Positions 24,549 to 43,581 of a stretch of DNA of 64,000 nt are shown piece by piece. The translations under genes and the position numbers were made by a program. The notes beneath the pieces were generated by a model. It saw only the letters and a program-made list of their open reading frames with translations. It ran no database searches and was not told the DNA's origin. The stretch's first letter is position 1. Every line of letters starts with the position of its first letter. The DNA is from Hydrogenophilus sp. (GTDB lineage Bacteria > Pseudomonadota > Gammaproteobacteria > Burkholderiales > Thiobacillaceae), in assembly GCA_020725265.1 (NCBI GenBank), contig DYFK01000004.1, positions 26,460 through 90,459 on the forward strand, in the 5' to 3' direction.

Positions 24549-27014
24549 CTAAGCCACATCCCGAAAAACGACTCTCATGTCCGTTCGCGTGGCGAGCATG
24601 TCCACCAGCGCGGCATGCGTGATCGGACGGCTGAACAAATAGCCCTGCCCGCCGCCGCATCCCAGTCGTTGCAGGAGTTCCGACTGTTCCGGGCGTTCTA
24701 TGCCTTCGACGATGATCTCCATGCGCAGCGACGCGGCGAGTGCGACCACCGCCTCGACGATTGCGATCTCGTCCCGCGCTTCCGGCAGATGATGGATGAA
24801 CGAACGGTCGATCTTGATCAGATCGATCGGCAGATCCCGCAGCACGCTCAGCGAGGAATAGCCGGTGCCGAAATCGTCGATACTGATCGAGACGCCGAGC
24901 CTTTTCAGTTCGCCGATGATCACGACGCTGCGTTCATGCGCCTGCAGGGTGCTCTCGGTGATCTCGAGTTCCAGAGCCGTGGCGGGGAAACCGCTGGCGA
25001 CCAGCGTATCACGCACGGCGCCGACGAAGTCCTCGCGCATGAATTCCCGTACCGAGACGTTGACCGCCAAACGCAGTTGCCTGCCGCTGGCGTCGCACAG
25101 ACCCAGGATCTCGCGGCATGCCCGCTCGAGAACCCAGTGCCCGAGGCTGTCGATCACCCCGCTCGCTTCGGCAATTGGAATGAAGCGCGTCGGCGGAATC
25201 ATCCCCAGCTCCGGATGCATCCAGCGCACCAGTGCCTCGACCCCGAAGATGCGCCCGTTCGAGAGATCGACCTGTGGCTGATAGTGAACGACCAGCTGAT
25301 CCTCTTCGATGGCGCGGCGCAGACCCTGCTCGATGATCAAACGTTCGTTGCTGTGTTCGGCCATGTCCTCGGAATAGAAGCGATAACGGTTGCGCCCGGC
25401 TTCCTTCGCCGAATACATGGCGATATCGGCGGCGCGCATCAGCAGGTGGCGATCGCCGCCATGGTCTGGATAGACCGCGATGCCGATGCTGCCGGATACG
25501 GTAATGCGCTCGCCGGCCAGATCGAATGGCGCGTGCACCGTAGCGAGGATTTTCTTCGCCAGGTCGGCGGCATATTCGGCGGTGTTGTCGCCGGCGAGGA
25601 TGACGAACTCGTCGCCGCCCAGGCGGGCGATGGTATCGGAGCCCCGCAGGGAATCGCGCAGGCGGCCGGCGACGATGCGCAGCAGCTCGTCGCCGACGCT
25701 GTGGCCGAGGGTGTCGTTGACCACCTTGAAGCTGTCGAGATCCAGGAACAGCAGCATGAAGCCCTGCTGCTGGCGGCGCGCCACCTCGATGGCCTGGTCC
25801 AGGCGGTCTTCCAGCAGCAAGCGGTTGGGCAACCCGGTCAGCGGATCATGATGGGCGAGGTGACGCAATTTTTCCTCGGCGGCATGCATGCCGCTGACAT
25901 CGGAAAAGGCGATCACGAAATGACTGGGCTGCCCCGCCGCGTTGCGTACCACGCTGATGCTTTGCCAGGCCGGGAAACGCGCGCCACCGTGACGCTGACA
26001 GACGACCTCGCCTTGCCAGTAGCCTTCGCTTTCCGCCGCCAGCGCCGCGAAGAAGCTTGCGTTGTCTTGCGTACCGCGCTGCACGCGAAGCAGCACGTCG
26101 GCATCGAAGCCGATGGCCTCGATCACGCCGTAACCGGTTATCCGCTCGAAGGCGACATTGGCGCAGACGATGCGGCGGTCAGCATCGACAATGACGATGG
26201 CTTCGGCCGAGGTATCGAACACCACACTGGACTGGCGCAGACGGTCTTCCATCTGGCGGCGTTCGGTGACGTCCTGCAACACCCCCACCAGCCGCCGCTC
26301 GACGTTTGCGTTCCGGAAGGCTTTGACCCTGGCCTCGATAACGTGCGGCCCCGTATTGCGCCGCGCGGTGCGGAATTCGATGCCATGGCCGTGTTCGGAA
26401 GCCAGAGCGCTCTCCAGCGCGGCGGCGAAGCTGGATCGATCGCCAGCATCAACCCGCGCGAGGAAGCTCTCCCATGATTCCTCGATCGGCACCTCGCGGT
26501 CGTCGAACAGCATGTCCAGGTGACCCTCGCCATGCAGGCGATCGGCCTTCGGCAACCATTCGATGACGCCCAGCGAGGCGGCATCCATCGCCAGCTTGAG
26601 GCGCAGCTCGCTCCGTTCCACGGCAAGCTCGATTTCACGCCGGGCAAGCGCCATCTGGATCGATGCATGCAGTTCACGGATATCCCATGGCTTGACCAGA
26701 TAGCCGAACGGCCGGCTGGCGAGCGCCCGGTGTAGGGTTTCGTCCTCGGCGTAGGCGGTCAGATAGATGATGGGAATCTGATGGCGCGCCTGGATTTCGC
26801 TTGCCGTCTCGATACCGTCCATGGCGCCTTCCAGATGGATATCCATCAGCACGAGATCGGGGCCGGCATCGGCGATGGATCGCATGGCTTGCTCACCGCT
26901 GCCGACCATCGCCACCACCCGATAACCCAGGGATTGCAACTGGTTCTTGAGATCGAAGGCGACGACGCGCTCGTCTTCGACCAGCATCAGGTTGACTGAC
27001 TTGACTGAGTTCAT
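24549..27014 (-). CDS. Response regulator with PAS, GGDEF and EAL domains
   Basis: 821-aa cytoplasmic c-di-GMP turnover protein. A receiver domain (residues 8-120; acidic pair E13/D14, phospho-acceptor D58, conserved K in GYLVKPW) is followed by two PAS-type regions (about 135-250 and 260-375). Then come GGDEF (385-545, intact GGDEF at 466-470, with an RxxD inhibitory site RGSD at 457-460) and EAL (560-810, EAL at 593-595; DDFGTGYSSL present). Both catalytic signatures are intact, so it could make and degrade c-di-GMP. Its ATG overlaps the stop of the upstream kinase gene by 4 nt, so its phosphodonor is probably that kinase. Confidence 0.94.
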   Translation of the reverse strand: MNSVKSVNLMLVEDERVVAFDLKNQLQSLGYRVVAMVGSGEQAMRSIADAGPDLVLMDIHLEGAMDGIETASEIQARHQIPIIYLTAYAEDETLHRALASRPFGYLVKPWDIRELHASIQMALARREIELAVERSELRLKLAMDAASLGVIEWLPKADRLHGEGHLDMLFDDREVPIEESWESFLARVDAGDRSSFAAALESALASEHGHGIEFRTARRNTGPHVIEARVKAFRNANVERRLVGVLQDVTERRQMEDRLRQSSVVFDTSAEAIVIVDADRRIVCANVAFERITGYGVIEAIGFDADVLLRVQRGTQDNASFFAALAAESEGYWQGEVVCQRHGGARFPAWQSISVVRNAAGQPSHFVIAFSDVSGMHAAEEKLRHLAHHDPLTGLPNRLLLEDRLDQAIEVARRQQQGFMLLFLDLDSFKVVNDTLGHSVGDELLRIVAGRLRDSLRGSDTIARLGGDEFVILAGDNTAEYAADLAKKILATVHAPFDLAGERITVSGSIGIAVYPDHGGDRHLLMRAADIAMYSAKEAGRNRYRFYSEDMAEHSNERLIIEQGLRRAIEEDQLVVHYQPQVDLSNGRIFGVEALVRWMHPELGMIPPTRFIPIAEASGVIDSLGHWVLERACREILGLCDASGRQLRLAVNVSVREFMREDFVGAVRDTLVASGFPATALELEITESTLQAHERSVVIIGELKRLGVSISIDDFGTGYSSLSVLRDLPIDLIKIDRSFIHHLPEARDEIAIVEAVVALAASLRMEIIVEGIERPEQSELLQRLGCGGGQGYLFSRPITHAALVDMLATRTDMRVVFRDVA

Positions 27015-28435
27015 GATGACCTCCCGGGTTCTGGGTCGCAGGGAAAGCGCAATGTAAAACGGGCACCCTGGCCATGCTCCACCGTGAAACGCCCACCCAG
27101 CTGCTCGGCGAACAGCGCCACCAGTTGCAGGCCGAGTGAATTCACATTCACCGGATCGAAGTTCTCGGGCAGGCCCACGCCATCGTCGGCGACGACCAGC
27201 TCGTATTCACCGTCCCCGACATGCAATTCGAGGCGAACCTCGCCACCGCGCCGATCGGGAAATGCGTGCTTGAAGGCATTGGTCACCAGCTCGTTGACCG
27301 CCAGACCACAGGGAATGGCGCGTTCGAAATCGAGGAATTGCGGCTCTTCGGGCATGATCTTGCGCAGGACGATGTGAGCGCCGCTCTCGCGATAACTACC
27401 AAGCAGCAACTGCGCCAGGCGATCAAGGTATTCGCCGAAATCCATGCGCGTATAGTCCTTGCGCTCGTAAAGCAGTTGATGGGTCAGCGCCATGGCGCGC
27501 ACCCGGCCCTGGCTCTCGGTGAGCATGGCACGCAGACTGGCATCGCCAGCTTGCGCGGCCTGCAGGTTGAGCAGACTGGATATCACCTGCAGGTTGTTCT
27601 TGACCCGGTGGTGCACCTCATTGAGCAGCACGGTCTTTTCCCGTAGCGCATTTTCCAGATTCTCGCGCTGGCGCAGGCGCTCGGTGATGTCGACGATGGA
27701 GGCCAAGACCATGACCCCATCCTCGGTATCGATCGGATTGAGGCCGATTTCGACCGCGAACTCGCTACCGTCGGCGCGGCGCGCGTACAGATCACGCCCG
27801 ACCCCCATCGGACGCGCCTGCGGCGATGCGAAGAATCCGCCGCGAAAACGCGCGTGTTCGGCGCGCAAGCGTTCCGGCACCAGCATTTCCACCCGCTGAC
27901 CGATCAGGACCTCGCGCGGGTAAGCGAAAAGCTGTTCGGTTTGCGCGTTGACCAGAACGATAAGACCGTCGCGATCGATCATCACCATTGCGTTTGGCGC
28001 ATATTCGACGACTCGGCGAAAACGCTCCTCGAGCCGCTTGCGACCCGTGATGTCGACGATCGTCGCGAGCACCCTGAAACCACCGCCAGTCTCAAGCGGC
28101 TTAAGGCCGATCTCGACCGGGAATTCGCTACCGTCACGGCGCCGCCCGTAAAGCTCTCGGCCGATCCCCATCGGCCTCGGTTGTGGATCGACCGCATAAC
28201 CCGCGCGGTAGCCGGGATGGTTTTCGGCGAAGCGTTCGGGCACCAGCTTCTCGACCGGCTCCCCGAGCAACTCCTCGCGGCTATAGCCGAATATCCGTTC
28301 GGCCATCGCGTTGATCAGGACGATGCGCCCCGTTTCATCGACCATGACCATCGCGGTCGGCGCCCATTCGACGACCTTGCGGAAAGAGTCATCCTCCACT
28401 GGCGATATCCCCGCCGGGACTCCTTTATTCATCAT
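27011..28435 (-). CDS. PAS-PAS sensor histidine kinase (HisKA_2 type)
   Basis: About 474 aa with no membrane segment, so a cytoplasmic sensor. Two very similar PAS domains (residues about 15-135 and 140-252, each with the motif VEIGL after RRxDGSEF) precede a HisKA_2 dimerisation helix with EVHHRVKNNLQ (phospho-acceptor His near 275). A HATPase_c domain follows, with NELVTNAFKHAF as N box and ADDGVGLPENF as G1. The start is set at ATG 28435 because GGAGAG lies just upstream; a 15-codon longer form is possible. It is translationally coupled to the response-regulator/GGDEF/EAL gene. The near-duplicate PAS domains suggest an internal duplication. Confidence 0.92.
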   Translation of the reverse strand: MMNKGVPAGISPVEDDSFRKVVEWAPTAMVMVDETGRIVLINAMAERIFGYSREELLGEPVEKLVPERFAENHPGYRAGYAVDPQPRPMGIGRELYGRRRDGSEFPVEIGLKPLETGGGFRVLATIVDITGRKRLEERFRRVVEYAPNAMVMIDRDGLIVLVNAQTEQLFAYPREVLIGQRVEMLVPERLRAEHARFRGGFFASPQARPMGVGRDLYARRADGSEFAVEIGLNPIDTEDGVMVLASIVDITERLRQRENLENALREKTVLLNEVHHRVKNNLQVISSLLNLQAAQAGDASLRAMLTESQGRVRAMALTHQLLYERKDYTRMDFGEYLDRLAQLLLGSYRESGAHIVLRKIMPEEPQFLDFERAIPCGLAVNELVTNAFKHAFPDRRGGEVRLELHVGDGEYELVVADDGVGLPENFDPVNVNSLGLQLVALFAEQLGGRFTVEHGQGARFTLRFPCDPEPGRSS

Positions 28436-28531
28436 CTGCTCTCCGAATGCAGCGATTGCTTCGGTAGCGTGAAGATGCATGCTGCCTCATGCACATCGCG
28501 TCACGCCCGGGGTTCGAGACCGGGGTGGCTA

Positions 28532-39737: not shown

Positions 39738-40211
39738 TCACGATCGATCGCGGTCACCCTTCCCGACTGGTTCCACCCTGGCCTCGATCACCGCGAAGGT
39801 GGCGCGCATCGCCACCACCACCCGCTCCGGACCGAGGATGGCGCCGGAGGCGTGGCACAGTCGGGAGCCGATCCGGATACGGTCGATCTGGCTTTCCAGG
39901 ACATCGCCCGCATGAACCGGCGCCAGGTAATCGACCGACAGATTGGCGGTGACGATGCGCCGCTCCGGCGGCAGTCGGCGGCCGACGTTGTAGCCGAGCC
40001 AGACATCGGCCAGCGCGGCCAGGAAGCCGCCGTGGGCGCTGCCGTGAATGTTGCGGTGACGCGACTCGACCACCACCCGGAAAGTCAGGTGCTCGCCATC
40101 GTCGCGGACGTACTGGGTGGCCAGCGCGGGCATGAAATCGCCGAGCGCCGGCCATTCGGCGAAGCCCTCGGTCAACCATTGGGCATGCGCGCCCGAAACG
40201 GAGGCCGGCAT
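39738..40211 (-). CDS. PaaI-type hotdog-fold thioesterase
   Basis: 157-aa single hotdog-fold protein. The helix motif NIHGSAHGGFLAALADVWLGYNVG contains the HGG(x)5-6-D active-site pattern of PaaI/YbgC-like acyl-CoA thioesterases, followed by strands ANLSVDYLAPVHAGDVLESQ and SRLCHASGAIL. It would hydrolyse an acyl-CoA of unknown chain. It starts 7 nt after the stop of the large BLUF/GGDEF/EAL gene, so the two are probably co-transcribed, though no functional link is evident. Confidence 0.88.
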   Translation of the reverse strand: MPASVSGAHAQWLTEGFAEWPALGDFMPALATQYVRDDGEHLTFRVVVESRHRNIHGSAHGGFLAALADVWLGYNVGRRLPPERRIVTANLSVDYLAPVHAGDVLESQIDRIRIGSRLCHASGAILGPERVVVAMRATFAVIEARVEPVGKGDRDRS

Positions 40212-40218
40212 GTCGCGT

Positions 40219-43200
40219 TCAATCGGTCGCGATCGGCCCGGCCGGGCCGCGGCCGAACGCCGTGATCAGCGCGTACGCGACCTGCGCGTCCTCGGCCAGG
40301 TCGAACAAACGCCAGTGTCGTCGCGTCCAGGGGCCGAAATCGGGCTGACCGGGACGTGGATCGAGATCGCGCAGGCCGAGCCCCCAGTCCGGAAACACCC
40401 GGCGCGGCGCATCCCCGGTGATCACCACGCGCAGGTCATGGTGGCGGGGATCGGTGCGCAGACGGGCATGCAGCGCCTCGACGGCCTCGCGACCACCTTC
40501 GATCCACTGCATGAACTCACCGTCCTGGTAAAGCAGCAACCCGGTGATGTTGTTGGCGGCATTCAGCACGCGCGCGCGTTCGCGCAGCTCGTTCAGTTCG
40601 GTTTCGCCCATGGGCCGGCGGGCGCGGCTGACATACAGCAGGAAATGGATCGGCGGGGTGGGCGATTCGATCGGCCGGACCTCGCCGCGTTCGACGGCGG
40701 CAAGGAAGTCGGCCTCGGCCTGCGGCCGATGGAACAGGAAACCCTGCGCGTATTCGCAACCGATCGCGCGCAGCTCCGCCAGCTGCGCCGGCGTTTCCAC
40801 ACCCTCGGCGATCCGCCTGAGGCCGAGCGCGCGCGCCATGCCGACCACGGCGGTGGTGATCGCCCGGCTGTCCGGACGCTTGTCGATGCCGGAGATGAAC
40901 TCGCGGTCGATCTTGAGGGTATCGACCGGCAGCCGCAGCAACTGGGCCAGCGACGAATAGCCGGTACCGAAATCATCGACCGCGACGCGCAATCCGAGAT
41001 CGGCGAGTCCGCGCAACACGCGCAGATTGGAATCGACATCCGACATCAGCGCGGTTTCGGTGATTTCCAGCACGATGCGGGCGGGATTCGCGGCGCGCGC
41101 GCGCAGACAGCCGGAGAAGGTCTCGACCAGATCGTCATCGTCGAGCTGGCGGGTCGACAGATTGACCGAGATGTAAGGCGCTTCCTCGCCCCAGCGCTGG
41201 CGCAGTCGGGCTTCCATCGCGCAGGCCTGATCGAAGGCCCAGACGCCGATGGCCTGGATGGCGCCGGACATTTCGGCGATCGGGATGAACGCGGCCGGCG
41301 ACACCTCGCCATCCGGCGGCCGCCAGCGCGCCAGCAGTTCGGCGCCACGAATCCGGCCGCTGTCGGTGGCGACGATGGGCTGGTAGAGCGCATGCAATTC
41401 GCCCCGCTCGACGGCGCCACGCAAGCCGTTGGCGATCGCCAGACGTCGCGCCGCTTCCCGGTGCAGATCCTCGCTGAAGAACTGCCAGCCATCGCGACCA
41501 CGCGCCTTGACCGCGTACATCGCGGCATCCGCGTTGCGCAGCATGTCCTCGGCGGAATGGCTGGCGCCGTGACCGACCGCCACGCCGATACTGGCGCTGA
41601 CGAAATGATCGTGGCCATCCAGGCGGACTGGTTCGCGCAACACCGCGTTCAGACGCTCGGCCAGGCCGGACAGGGCATCGATATCCTCGACCTGCTCGCC
41701 GAGCACCACGAATTCATCGCCACCGAGCCGGCCCACCGTATCGCCCGGACGCACGCTGGCGACCAGACGCTCGGCGACCTCGACCAGCAAGCGGTCGCCG
41801 GCCTCGTGGCCATGGCTGTCGTTGATCAGCTTGAAACCGTCCAGATCGATGAACAACAGCACCACCTGGCCTTGCCCACGTTTCGATCGGGCCAGCGCGC
41901 TGCTCAGGCGATCCCGGATAAGCGCCCGGTTGGGCAGCGCGGTAAGCGGGTCGTGGCTGGCGCGCCAGGTCAGCGCCTGTTCCGCCAGTTTGCGCTCGCT
42001 GATGTCCTGGAGCGTGACCACCAGCAGGCATTCGTCGCCACTCCGGAAACGCGCGATCGAGGCCTTGGCCGGAAACACCGAACCATCCTTGCGATAACCG
42101 GACACCTCGCCGCGCCGGCCCATCGGCAGCTCGGCCTGATCACTGGCGAGGAAACGCCGGACGTGCTCGACGTGCAGGTTGCGGAATTGCGGCGGCACCA
42201 GTTGATGCACGGACAGGCCGAGCATTTCGTCGACGCCGTAGCCGAACATCTCGCGGGCGACCCGGTTGGCCTGGACGATGACGCCTTGCTCGTCGGCGGC
42301 GATCACGGCCGCGTCCGCGAGCGCCAGGATGTGGTCGACGCGGCGGTCGACCGGCACCCGGGGCGCGCCCGTCGGGCGGGAAGGCACAACCGGCCCGGCA
42401 CCCTCGCCGGCTGTCCGGGCCTGGAAGAAATTGGCCAGGTAACGATCCGGAATCACCGGAGCGATCCGGCCGAACGACTCGACGATGGTGAAGGAGCCGT
42501 TGGCCTCGCAGCGGGCAAGATAGGTATTGACGTAGGCATGATGACTGGCCGGATCCATGCGCACCTCGCCCTGCGGCGCGCGCAGTCGGACCCGTTCCAG
42601 CGCCGCCACCAAGGCATCCGGATCCAGTCCGCCGGCGGTTTCCGCCGCCTGGGCGAACGCCTTCACGCACAGCCAGGTGGCCTCGCCGAAATTGGTGAGC
42701 ACGCCGTCGCCGTCCGGCCAGACTCCGGAAACTTCCGGCAAGGCCGCCAGCCGGGCCAGGCAGGCCCGGTTTTCCGGTGTGTCCACCGACATGAAATAGG
42801 TATTGCTGGAATACAGGCCGGCGCGGACTTCCGGCGCCAGTCGGCTGACCATCAGTTCGTCGTAATGGCCCATGACCACGGCCATGTGGCCTTTGAGGCC
42901 CATTTCGTAAAAGCGGGTGAGCAACGTGATCTGGTCGGCACCGGCGAAGTACGGCACGAAGACGTCGGCGCCGGAGCGCGCCACCCGCGTCAGCAGGTCG
43001 TCGATCGCGCGCGCGTCGTCGATGCCGATCGGCAGATAGGTTTCGCCGACCACCTCGCCACCGATCGCCAACAGCGCCCGCTTGGCCGCGTCGATCGAAC
43101 CCAGCGGCCATTCGTAATTGCTGCCGGCGAAATACATCTTGGGGCCATATCGCGCGGCCATGGCCGGGATCATGCGCTCGATCTGCTGGTTGGGCAGCGC

Positions 43201-43581
43201 CGCGAAATGGAAGAAATGCCGGCAGCCGATACTGCCTTCGTAGAACGAGAAATTTAGGTAGGGTATCCGCGCCGGCTCGGCCACCTGACTGGCGACGGCG
43301 ATGCGCGAATTCGACAGCAGGTTGCCGATGAGCGCGACGCAGCCGTGTTCCTCGACCAACCGGCGCGCGGCCGGGACCGCGGTTTCCGGCAGACTGCCGT
43401 CGTCCTCGACGATCAGCTCCAGCGGTCGGCCGAGTACACCGCCACCGGCGTTGATTTCGTCACAGGCAAGCCGACCCGCCCGGCTGATCTCCGGCCCATA
43501 CAACGCGACCAGCCCGGTCAGCGGCGTCATCAGGCCGAGCCGGACGGGTCTGGTGGCGTGGTCGGAAACGGTGGCGGTCAT
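40219..43581 (-). CDS. Multidomain c-di-GMP protein: PBP-like sensor, PAS, GGDEF, EAL and BLUF
   Basis: 1120 aa (start ATG 43581; an upstream ATG at 43641 adds 20 aa). Residues about 12-390 resemble branched-chain-amino-acid/amide-binding proteins of the AmiC/UrtA type (RLGLMTPLTGLVALYGPE, INAGGGVLGRPLELIVEDD), but no signal peptide or membrane helix is present, so this sensor is cytoplasmic like AmiC. PAS is at about 412-530. GGDEF is at 537-705, with an intact GGDEF at 620-624 and inhibitory RxxD at 611-614. EAL is at 715-955, reading ELL at 748-750, with DDFGTGYSSL and KID intact. BLUF is at 978-1075: Y983, N1007, Q1025 and W1066 match the flavin-photocycle residues, while the usual Met is Leu1068. 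It probably senses a small ligand and blue light to set c-di-GMP levels. Confidence 0.9.
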   Translation of the reverse strand: MTATVSDHATRPVRLGLMTPLTGLVALYGPEISRAGRLACDEINAGGGVLGRPLELIVEDDGSLPETAVPAARRLVEEHGCVALIGNLLSNSRIAVASQVAEPARIPYLNFSFYEGSIGCRHFFHFAALPNQQIERMIPAMAARYGPKMYFAGSNYEWPLGSIDAAKRALLAIGGEVVGETYLPIGIDDARAIDDLLTRVARSGADVFVPYFAGADQITLLTRFYEMGLKGHMAVVMGHYDELMVSRLAPEVRAGLYSSNTYFMSVDTPENRACLARLAALPEVSGVWPDGDGVLTNFGEATWLCVKAFAQAAETAGGLDPDALVAALERVRLRAPQGEVRMDPASHHAYVNTYLARCEANGSFTIVESFGRIAPVIPDRYLANFFQARTAGEGAGPVVPSRPTGAPRVPVDRRVDHILALADAAVIAADEQGVIVQANRVAREMFGYGVDEMLGLSVHQLVPPQFRNLHVEHVRRFLASDQAELPMGRRGEVSGYRKDGSVFPAKASIARFRSGDECLLVVTLQDISERKLAEQALTWRASHDPLTALPNRALIRDRLSSALARSKRGQGQVVLLFIDLDGFKLINDSHGHEAGDRLLVEVAERLVASVRPGDTVGRLGGDEFVVLGEQVEDIDALSGLAERLNAVLREPVRLDGHDHFVSASIGVAVGHGASHSAEDMLRNADAAMYAVKARGRDGWQFFSEDLHREAARRLAIANGLRGAVERGELHALYQPIVATDSGRIRGAELLARWRPPDGEVSPAAFIPIAEMSGAIQAIGVWAFDQACAMEARLRQRWGEEAPYISVNLSTRQLDDDDLVETFSGCLRARAANPARIVLEITETALMSDVDSNLRVLRGLADLGLRVAVDDFGTGYSSLAQLLRLPVDTLKIDREFISGIDKRPDSRAITTAVVGMARALGLRRIAEGVETPAQLAELRAIGCEYAQGFLFHRPQAEADFLAAVERGEVRPIESPTPPIHFLLYVSRARRPMGETELNELRERARVLNAANNITGLLLYQDGEFMQWIEGGREAVEALHARLRTDPRHHDLRVVITGDAPRRVFPDWGLGLRDLDPRPGQPDFGPWTRRHWRLFDLAEDAQVAYALITAFGRGPAGPIATD

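What the first reader, a model, noticed from the sequence alone, without database searches (positions are those of the whole stretch)
40219..43581. PBP-like sensor, PAS, GGDEF, EAL and BLUF in one protein
The order of domains is unusual: a cytoplasmic AmiC/UrtA-like ligand-binding fold at the N terminus and a blue-light flavin (BLUF) domain at the C terminus of a full GGDEF-EAL protein. BLUF photocycle residues Tyr983, Asn1007, Gln1025 and Trp1066 are present, with the semi-conserved Met replaced by Leu. BLUF-EAL proteins are known (BlrP1, YcgF), but I know of none with a binding-protein-like sensor and C-terminal BLUF. It would merge metabolite and light inputs on c-di-GMP.
Basis: partly seen in the sequence, partly recalled or inferred. 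Interest (0 to 1): 0.8.

Follow-up and report, generated by a model that had tools for sequence, protein, structure and literature searches.

The report
Blue-light-controlled c-di-GMP phosphodiesterase (BldP family)
The gene encodes a large soluble signalling protein with a small-molecule-binding domain, a possibly heme-binding domain, c-di-GMP enzyme domains and a blue-light sensor; the domains are real, but the whole arrangement belongs to a family of light-activated enzymes already studied in two bacteria.

Summary
In detail: window 43581-40219 (-) encodes 1120 aa with Peripla_BP_6, PAS, GGDEF, EAL and C-terminal BLUF, all above Pfam cut-offs. BLUF residues Tyr983, Asn1007, Gln1025 and Trp1066 are present, with Leu1068 in place of Met. 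A hydropathy scan shows no membrane segment or signal peptide. The claim that no such protein is known fails: the same five domains in the same order occur in 28 other loci. A review lists the light-activated phosphodiesterase BldP from these two species. So this is a new BldP-family member. Most likely mechanism (inferred): blue light on BLUF activates EAL hydrolysis of c-di-GMP, gated by the PAS and AmiC/UrtA-like domains. New here: the PAS is closest to FixL among solved structures, and the His at FixL's proximal-heme position is kept in 30 of 30 members with a PAS; this could explain the oxygen dependence that I recall for BldP.

The parts
40219..43581 (-). bldP-like gene, 1120 aa: PBP - PAS - GGDEF - EAL - BLUF
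   Evidence: full-length relatives
42496..43548 (-). AmiC/UrtA-like binding-protein domain (residues 12-362), no signal peptide apparent
   Evidence: Pfam Peripla_BP_6 E 7.7e-69; solved relatives 8tg1, UrtA 7s6e, AmiC 1pea; hydropathy
41995..42342 (-). PAS domain (residues 414-529), FixL/DosP-like
   Evidence: RmFixL 1d06 E 1.9e-15
42172..42174 (-). codon of His470, aligned with the FixL His that I recall as the proximal heme ligand
   Evidence: alignment; His in 30 of 30 family PAS domains; 4 of 14 PAS stretches from EAL loci of the same genome
41491..41961 (-). GGDEF domain (residues 541-697), motif GGDEF (620-624) with RPGD I-site (611-614)
40723..41424 (-). EAL domain (residues 720-953), examined catalytic residues present (motif ELL)
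40378..40644 (-). BLUF domain (residues 980-1068): Tyr983, Asn1007, Gln1025, Trp1066; Leu1068 where 32 of 34 members have Met
39738..40211 (-). 4HBT (PaaI-like) thioesterase gene starting 7 bases beyond the stop; perhaps co-transcribed, no functional link shown
   Evidence: no tblastn hit in 46 related loci, many with short flanks

Best explanation
The gene encodes an orthologue or close paralogue of BldP, a soluble blue-light-activated c-di-GMP phosphodiesterase. Shown: domain order, full-length homology, conserved catalytic and photocycle residues. Inferred: flavin in the C-terminal BLUF domain absorbs blue light; the hydrogen-bond change around Tyr983 and Gln1025 is passed to the neighbouring EAL domain, which hydrolyses c-di-GMP. 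The GGDEF domain keeps its motif and I-site here but is degenerate in some relatives, so it is more likely a nucleotide-responsive regulator or minor cyclase than the main output. The AmiC/UrtA-like domain senses a small amide- or urea-like solute in the cytoplasm, and the FixL-like PAS probably binds heme; both set how strongly light acts. Net effect: light lowers c-di-GMP only under the right metabolic and gas or redox state.
For: Domains. Same architecture and full-length homology to the single EAL-BLUF-sized frame of the genomes taken as A. vinosum (58.8% over 1119 aligned positions) and M. marinus (53.0% over 1105). BldP of these two species listed as blue-light-activated BLUF/FAD phosphodiesterase: review PMC8846402, passages seen. 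Among 34 EAL-BLUF members including the window protein, EAL residues E748, N807, E839, E842, D869, D870, K890, E929 and Q946 are kept in 34 and E926 in 33; BLUF Tyr, Asn, Gln and Trp in 34. GGDEF: of the 33 with that region, 28 have xGDEF and 5 do not (3 SADEF, 2 ANEEF). PAS closest to FixL among solved structures. AmiC/UrtA similarity.
Against: No activity, flavin, heme or ligand was measured. Position 1068 is Leu, where 32 of 34 members have Met, and the strand with that Met is held essential for BLUF signalling (PMC4630285, two passages). The Arg that stabilises O2 in FixL/DosP aligns with Gly491. On the tree the window protein is a separate long branch (0.43), apart from its same-genus relative, so strict orthology is unproven. 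BLUF-less versions of the same core exist, so the core can be kept without light sensing. The structure model was too poor to show how BLUF and EAL meet.
Confidence: 0.82

Rival explanations
1. Bifunctional light switch: both GGDEF and EAL are active, and light or ligand flips the balance from c-di-GMP synthesis to degradation.
For: The window protein keeps canonical GGDEF, the metal Asp579 and the RPGD I-site.
Against: 5 of the 33 members with the region have a degenerate motif (SADEF or ANEEF), while the examined EAL catalytic residues are kept in 33-34 of 34; BldP is listed as a phosphodiesterase.
Confidence: 0.25
2. The BLUF domain has lost signalling (Met to Leu at 1068), and the protein acts as a ligand- or gas-regulated phosphodiesterase whose light response is vestigial.
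For: Leu at 1068 only in the window protein and L038, of 34; separate long branch of the window protein; BLUF-less relatives exist.
Against: Tyr, Asn, Gln and Trp are all kept and the BLUF score remains strong.
Confidence: 0.12
3. Catalytically silent trigger or binding protein, like E. coli BluF, that acts through protein contacts.
For: E. coli BluF has a degenerate EAL without phosphodiesterase activity and antagonises BluR (PMC3509220, start of abstract seen).
Against: The examined EAL catalytic residues are present here and nearly invariant across the family.
Confidence: 0.05

Closest known systems
BldP of Allochromatium vinosum and Magnetococcus marinus (Ryu et al. 2017, J Bacteriol 199:e00014-17; paper not held, abstract recalled, reference seen)
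   Same: Five domains in the same order, C-terminal EAL-BLUF, identity 58.8% and 53.0% over nearly the full length, catalytic and photocycle residues conserved.
   Different: Leu instead of Met at 1068; separate long branch on the tree.
BlrP1 (Klebsiella pneumoniae) and BluF/YcgF (E. coli)
   Same: BLUF linked to an EAL domain (for BlrP1, for BluF).
   Different: BLUF is N-terminal to EAL and there is no PBP, PAS or GGDEF domain (recalled).
DosP (E. coli) and FixL heme-PAS sensors
   Same: PAS closest in sequence to FixL and DosP PAS; DosP is also a PAS-type c-di-GMP phosphodiesterase.
   Different: O2-stabilising Arg not at the aligned position (Gly491); heme binding untested.
AmiC and UrtA binding proteins
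   Same: Similarity over the whole domain, E 1.7e-28 (AmiC 1pea) and 7.2e-33 (UrtA 7s6e); AmiC is likewise cytoplasmic (recalled).
   Different: Here fused to c-di-GMP enzymes; ligand unknown.
RmcA (Pseudomonas aeruginosa), a PBP-clan sensor on a c-di-GMP enzyme
   Same: A PBP-clan domain and a PAS domain on one c-di-GMP phosphodiesterase (review PMC8846402).
   Different: RmcA uses SBP_bac_3, another family of the clan, in the periplasm and without BLUF (recalled).

Membership tests
BldP family | C-terminal EAL-BLUF module | tested here: met
   EAL 720-953, BLUF 980-1068
BldP family | Full-length homology and same domain order as the A. vinosum and M. marinus proteins | tested here: met
   58.8% over 1119 and 53.0% over 1105 aligned positions; Pfam order in both.
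BldP family | EAL catalytic residues present | tested here: met
BldP family | Photoactive BLUF with FAD | not testable with these tools
   Tyr983, Asn1007, Gln1025, Trp1066 present, Met replaced by Leu1068; flavin not measurable
BldP family | Blue-light-activated, oxygen-dependent c-di-GMP hydrolysis | not testable with these tools
   needs enzyme assay; oxygen dependence recalled only
BlrP1/BluF type BLUF-EAL | N-terminal BLUF followed by EAL | tested here: not met
   BLUF is at the C-terminus
FixL/DosP heme-PAS | His at the FixL proximal-ligand position | tested here: met
   His470 aligned with the FixL His, 30 of 30 in the family
FixL/DosP heme-PAS | Distal Arg that stabilises bound O2 | tested here: not met
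   aligned residue is Gly491; Arg at that column in 2 of 30; Arg490 next to it in 29 of 30
FixL/DosP heme-PAS | Bound heme | not testable with these tools
   needs a spectrum
AmiC/UrtA amide/urea receptors | Polar pocket residues equivalent to AmiC Ser85, Thr106, Tyr150 (pocket residues recalled) | tested here: inconclusive
   Ser90, Ser112, Tyr156 align; kept in 26, 27 and 25 of the 29 members with the domain

The most novel reading that the evidence does not exclude
BldP-family proteins are three-input integrators: a cytoplasmic AmiC/UrtA-like domain reports an amide- or urea-type metabolite, a FixL-type heme PAS without the classical distal Arg reports O2, NO or redox, and BLUF reports blue light, all gating one EAL phosphodiesterase. 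The heme PAS would be the cause of the oxygen dependence recalled for light activation of BldP.
Probability: 0.4. Interest if true: 0.55.

Novelty: new member of a known kind. Interest (0 to 1): 0.3.

Why it matters
It places the window protein in a light-activated phosphodiesterase family that has supplied an optogenetic tool (EB1), and shows five-domain members in beta-, methanotrophic gamma- and one alphaproteobacterial record beside the purple sulfur and magnetotactic ones. It also points to two inputs for which I found no test: a cytoplasmic solute-binding domain and a FixL-like PAS with an invariant heme-type His. If heme is confirmed, the oxygen dependence recalled for BldP has a structural cause that one spectrum can test.

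Tried and rejected
Structure prediction of the full-length protein with 13 aligned sequences gave a poor model (mean pLDDT 59.1, pTM 0.32), so no fold search was run and nothing is concluded about domain packing.

Conserved gene neighbourhood: tblastn with the neighbouring thioesterase gave no hit in 46 related loci, but many of these loci hold only one or two kilobases beside the gene and not all carry it, so this is weak evidence. No operon function is inferred.

Heme signature as mere PAS background: 14 PAS stretches, some partial, from ORFs in 20 EAL loci of the same genome gave His at the column in 4 and a gap in 3. So the 30 of 30 in the family is not simply what any PAS shows, but the control is small, only 20 of the 37 EAL matches were used, and the profile that found the stretches was built from the 30 family members.

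Categorical novelty, and a fusion created by misassembly, were both rejected once full-length relatives were found in independent genomes.

Literature: 8 searches. Ten held papers contain 'BldP' or 'EAL-BLUF'. By title and abstract start, PMC8846402 is the only one on c-di-GMP; PMC4477167 uses 'EAL-BLUF' once, about BlrP1; the other eight were judged from the listing only. I saw no description of the N-terminal binding domain of BldP in the passages I read, but no paper was read whole and the original BldP paper is not held, so it may already describe that domain.

The first family search around L028 failed on the handle form and was redone through.

Full report
What was checked. The finding is the minus-strand ORF 43581-40219 (1120 aa, P0001). 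Pfam finds Peripla_BP_6 (12-362), PAS (414-529 over two models), GGDEF (541-697), EAL (720-953) and BLUF (980-1068), each above its cut-off. A hydropathy scan shows no stretch typical of a membrane segment or signal peptide. The window's genome is 3.3 Mb in 36 contigs; this is its only BLUF match, beside 37 EAL matches, 36 of them over the cut-off. NCBIfam matched 37 families; of the 25 shown, only the generic GGDEF and PAS domain models reach their cut-offs.

Is it alone? No. A scan of the named genome collection with an alignment of three BLUF tails, which used two short peptide patterns and so reaches only part of the family, gave 29 loci. Of these, 10 have all five domains in one frame; 2 have short GGDEF-EAL-BLUF frames (L028 Thiocystis violacea, and L031, whose frame holds an unknown residue and has a separate PAS-GGDEF-like stretch upstream); 1 is a phytochrome-BLUF fusion (L033); and 16 hold small single-BLUF frames. 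In the family of the Thiocystis genome, 40 of 116 sampled genomes match the tail. I fetched 19 loci, 18 from there and 1 from the genome of L029: 12 have all five domains in one frame, and the others are one frame with only a fragment of the binding domain (L060), one GGDEF-EAL-BLUF (L057), one EAL-BLUF (L072) and 4 with BLUF but no EAL match. A further 8 loci gave 6 five-domain frames and 2 without EAL match. That makes 28 five-domain relatives plus the window protein. Elsewhere they are patchy: among 370 sampled genomes of the class, 53 have a BLUF match, but apart from the window only one such frame exceeds 1000 aa. In one genus of the Thiocystis family all 8 of 8 genomes have one.

Link to a known family. 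The review PMC8846402 (passages seen) lists BldP of Allochromatium vinosum and Magnetococcus marinus as blue-light-activated, FAD-binding BLUF phosphodiesterases, citing Ryu et al. 2017. That paper is not held; from recall, its abstract says that BldP has C-terminal EAL-BLUF modules and that light activation depended on oxygen. Two of my five-domain relatives lie on contigs of 3,526,903 bp and 4,719,581 bp, which I recall as the A. vinosum DSM 180 chromosome and the M. marinus MC-1 genome. In these genomes the BLUF frames are 1150 and 261 aa, and 1122, 168 and 144 aa, so only one frame in each can hold EAL plus BLUF. The window protein is 58.8% identical to the first over 1119 aligned positions and 53.0% to the second over 1105, and Pfam gives the same domain order in both. 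An older census also lists a BLUF-GGDEF/EAL protein in Methylomicrobium alcaliphilum (PMC4844311, passages). I conclude that the window protein is a member of the BldP family.

Conservation. Of 34 EAL-BLUF members including the window protein, 11 of the 13 EAL positions printed are invariant; the middle letter of the EAL motif varies (Leu 28, Ala 4, Val 1, Met 1) and E926 is Lys in one (L079). BLUF Tyr983, Asn1007, Gln1025 and Trp1066 are invariant; position 1068 is Met in 32 and Leu in the window protein and L038. GGDEF is less constrained: of the 33 with the region, 28 keep xGDEF, 3 have SADEF and 2 ANEEF; Asp579 is lost in one, Asn587 in two and Asp588 in three; the RxxD of the I-site is lost in one (M. 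marinus). This pattern points to phosphodiesterase as the maintained output.

The PAS domain. Its best solved relatives are FixL (1d06, E 1.9e-15), a multi-sensor kinase (10jx), other FixL entries and DosP. His470 aligns with the FixL His that I recall as the proximal heme ligand; in DosP the proximal ligand is H77 (PMC4263535, passages). All 30 family members that have the PAS keep this His and Arg467, against 4 of 14 PAS stretches from EAL loci of the same genome. Against a standard O2 sensor: the distal Arg position of FixL aligns with Gly491, which is Arg in only 2 of 30; Arg490 beside it is kept in 29 of 30. I read this as a probable heme PAS of uncertain gas preference.

The N-terminal domain. 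It matches AmiC and UrtA over nearly its whole length. Recalled AmiC amide contacts Ser85, Thr106 and Tyr150 align with Ser90, Ser112 and Tyr156, a hint of an amide- or urea-like ligand. They are not invariant: of the 29 members with the domain, Ser90 is kept in 26, Ser112 in 27 and Tyr156 in 25.

Evolution. A tree of the part before BLUF (35 rows) puts the window protein on its own long branch, apart from its same-genus relative L032 and from the clade that holds A. vinosum. The root is a midpoint, for drawing only. Besides the window, 3 of 184 sampled class genomes have a close relative of the binding domain at E 1e-60 or better: two are PBP-PAS-GGDEF-EAL frames without BLUF (L084, L086), and one frame runs off its contig end (L085). 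L084 sits among BLUF-bearing rows in a group with support 99/95, so BLUF has probably been lost there; L086 is a very long branch and is not placed. Rows labelled 'Chrom' carry my default label; for L084 and L086 it is not a taxonomic finding.

What I could not settle. The structure model was poor. Flavin, heme, ligand, enzyme activity and light response are untested. Whether the original BldP paper already discusses the binding domain is unknown to me. The host is most likely a betaproteobacterium: the contig of a same-genus genome (G067:C101, 21,819 bp) has the same length as the named record of L032, a Betaproteobacteria MAG.

Verdict. A real, intact sensor protein, but a new member of a known kind. 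The interest lies in the untested inputs, not in the light-EAL fusion.

Noticed in passing
L033:3724-6429 (+), Oxalobacteraceae MAG contig CANFGA010000011.1: A bacteriophytochrome histidine kinase (PAS_2-GAF-PHY-HisKA_3-HATPase_c) with a C-terminal BLUF domain 49% identical to that of the window protein: a possible red- and blue-light receptor in one chain, suggesting that the BLUF tail moves between outputs. One copy seen; assembly error not excluded.
   Followed up: partly
window 40117-43257 (+): A 1046-aa open frame runs antisense to almost the whole gene; I take it as a by-product of GC-rich coding DNA, untested.
   Followed up: no
window 27011-28480 (-) and 24549-27014 (-): A PAS-PAS-HisKA_2 histidine kinase gene overlaps by 4 bases a response-regulator-PAS-GGDEF-EAL gene. 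One PAS stretch of the kinase has His at the FixL column and Arg at the distal column (frame in L097): a possible FixL-like gas-sensing two-component control of c-di-GMP.
   Followed up: partly
G000 whole genome: 37 EAL matches (36 over the Pfam cut-off) in a 3.3 Mb genome, a large c-di-GMP network.
   Followed up: no
L028:4678-6432 (+) and L057:3011-4828 (+): Short GGDEF-EAL-BLUF versions without PBP and PAS match, with the GGDEF motif decayed to ANEEF: natural minimal relatives.
   Followed up: partly
L072:2228-3532 (-): A 435-aa frame with only EAL and C-terminal BLUF, resembling the EAL-BLUF fragment EB1 recalled from the BldP work.
   Followed up: no
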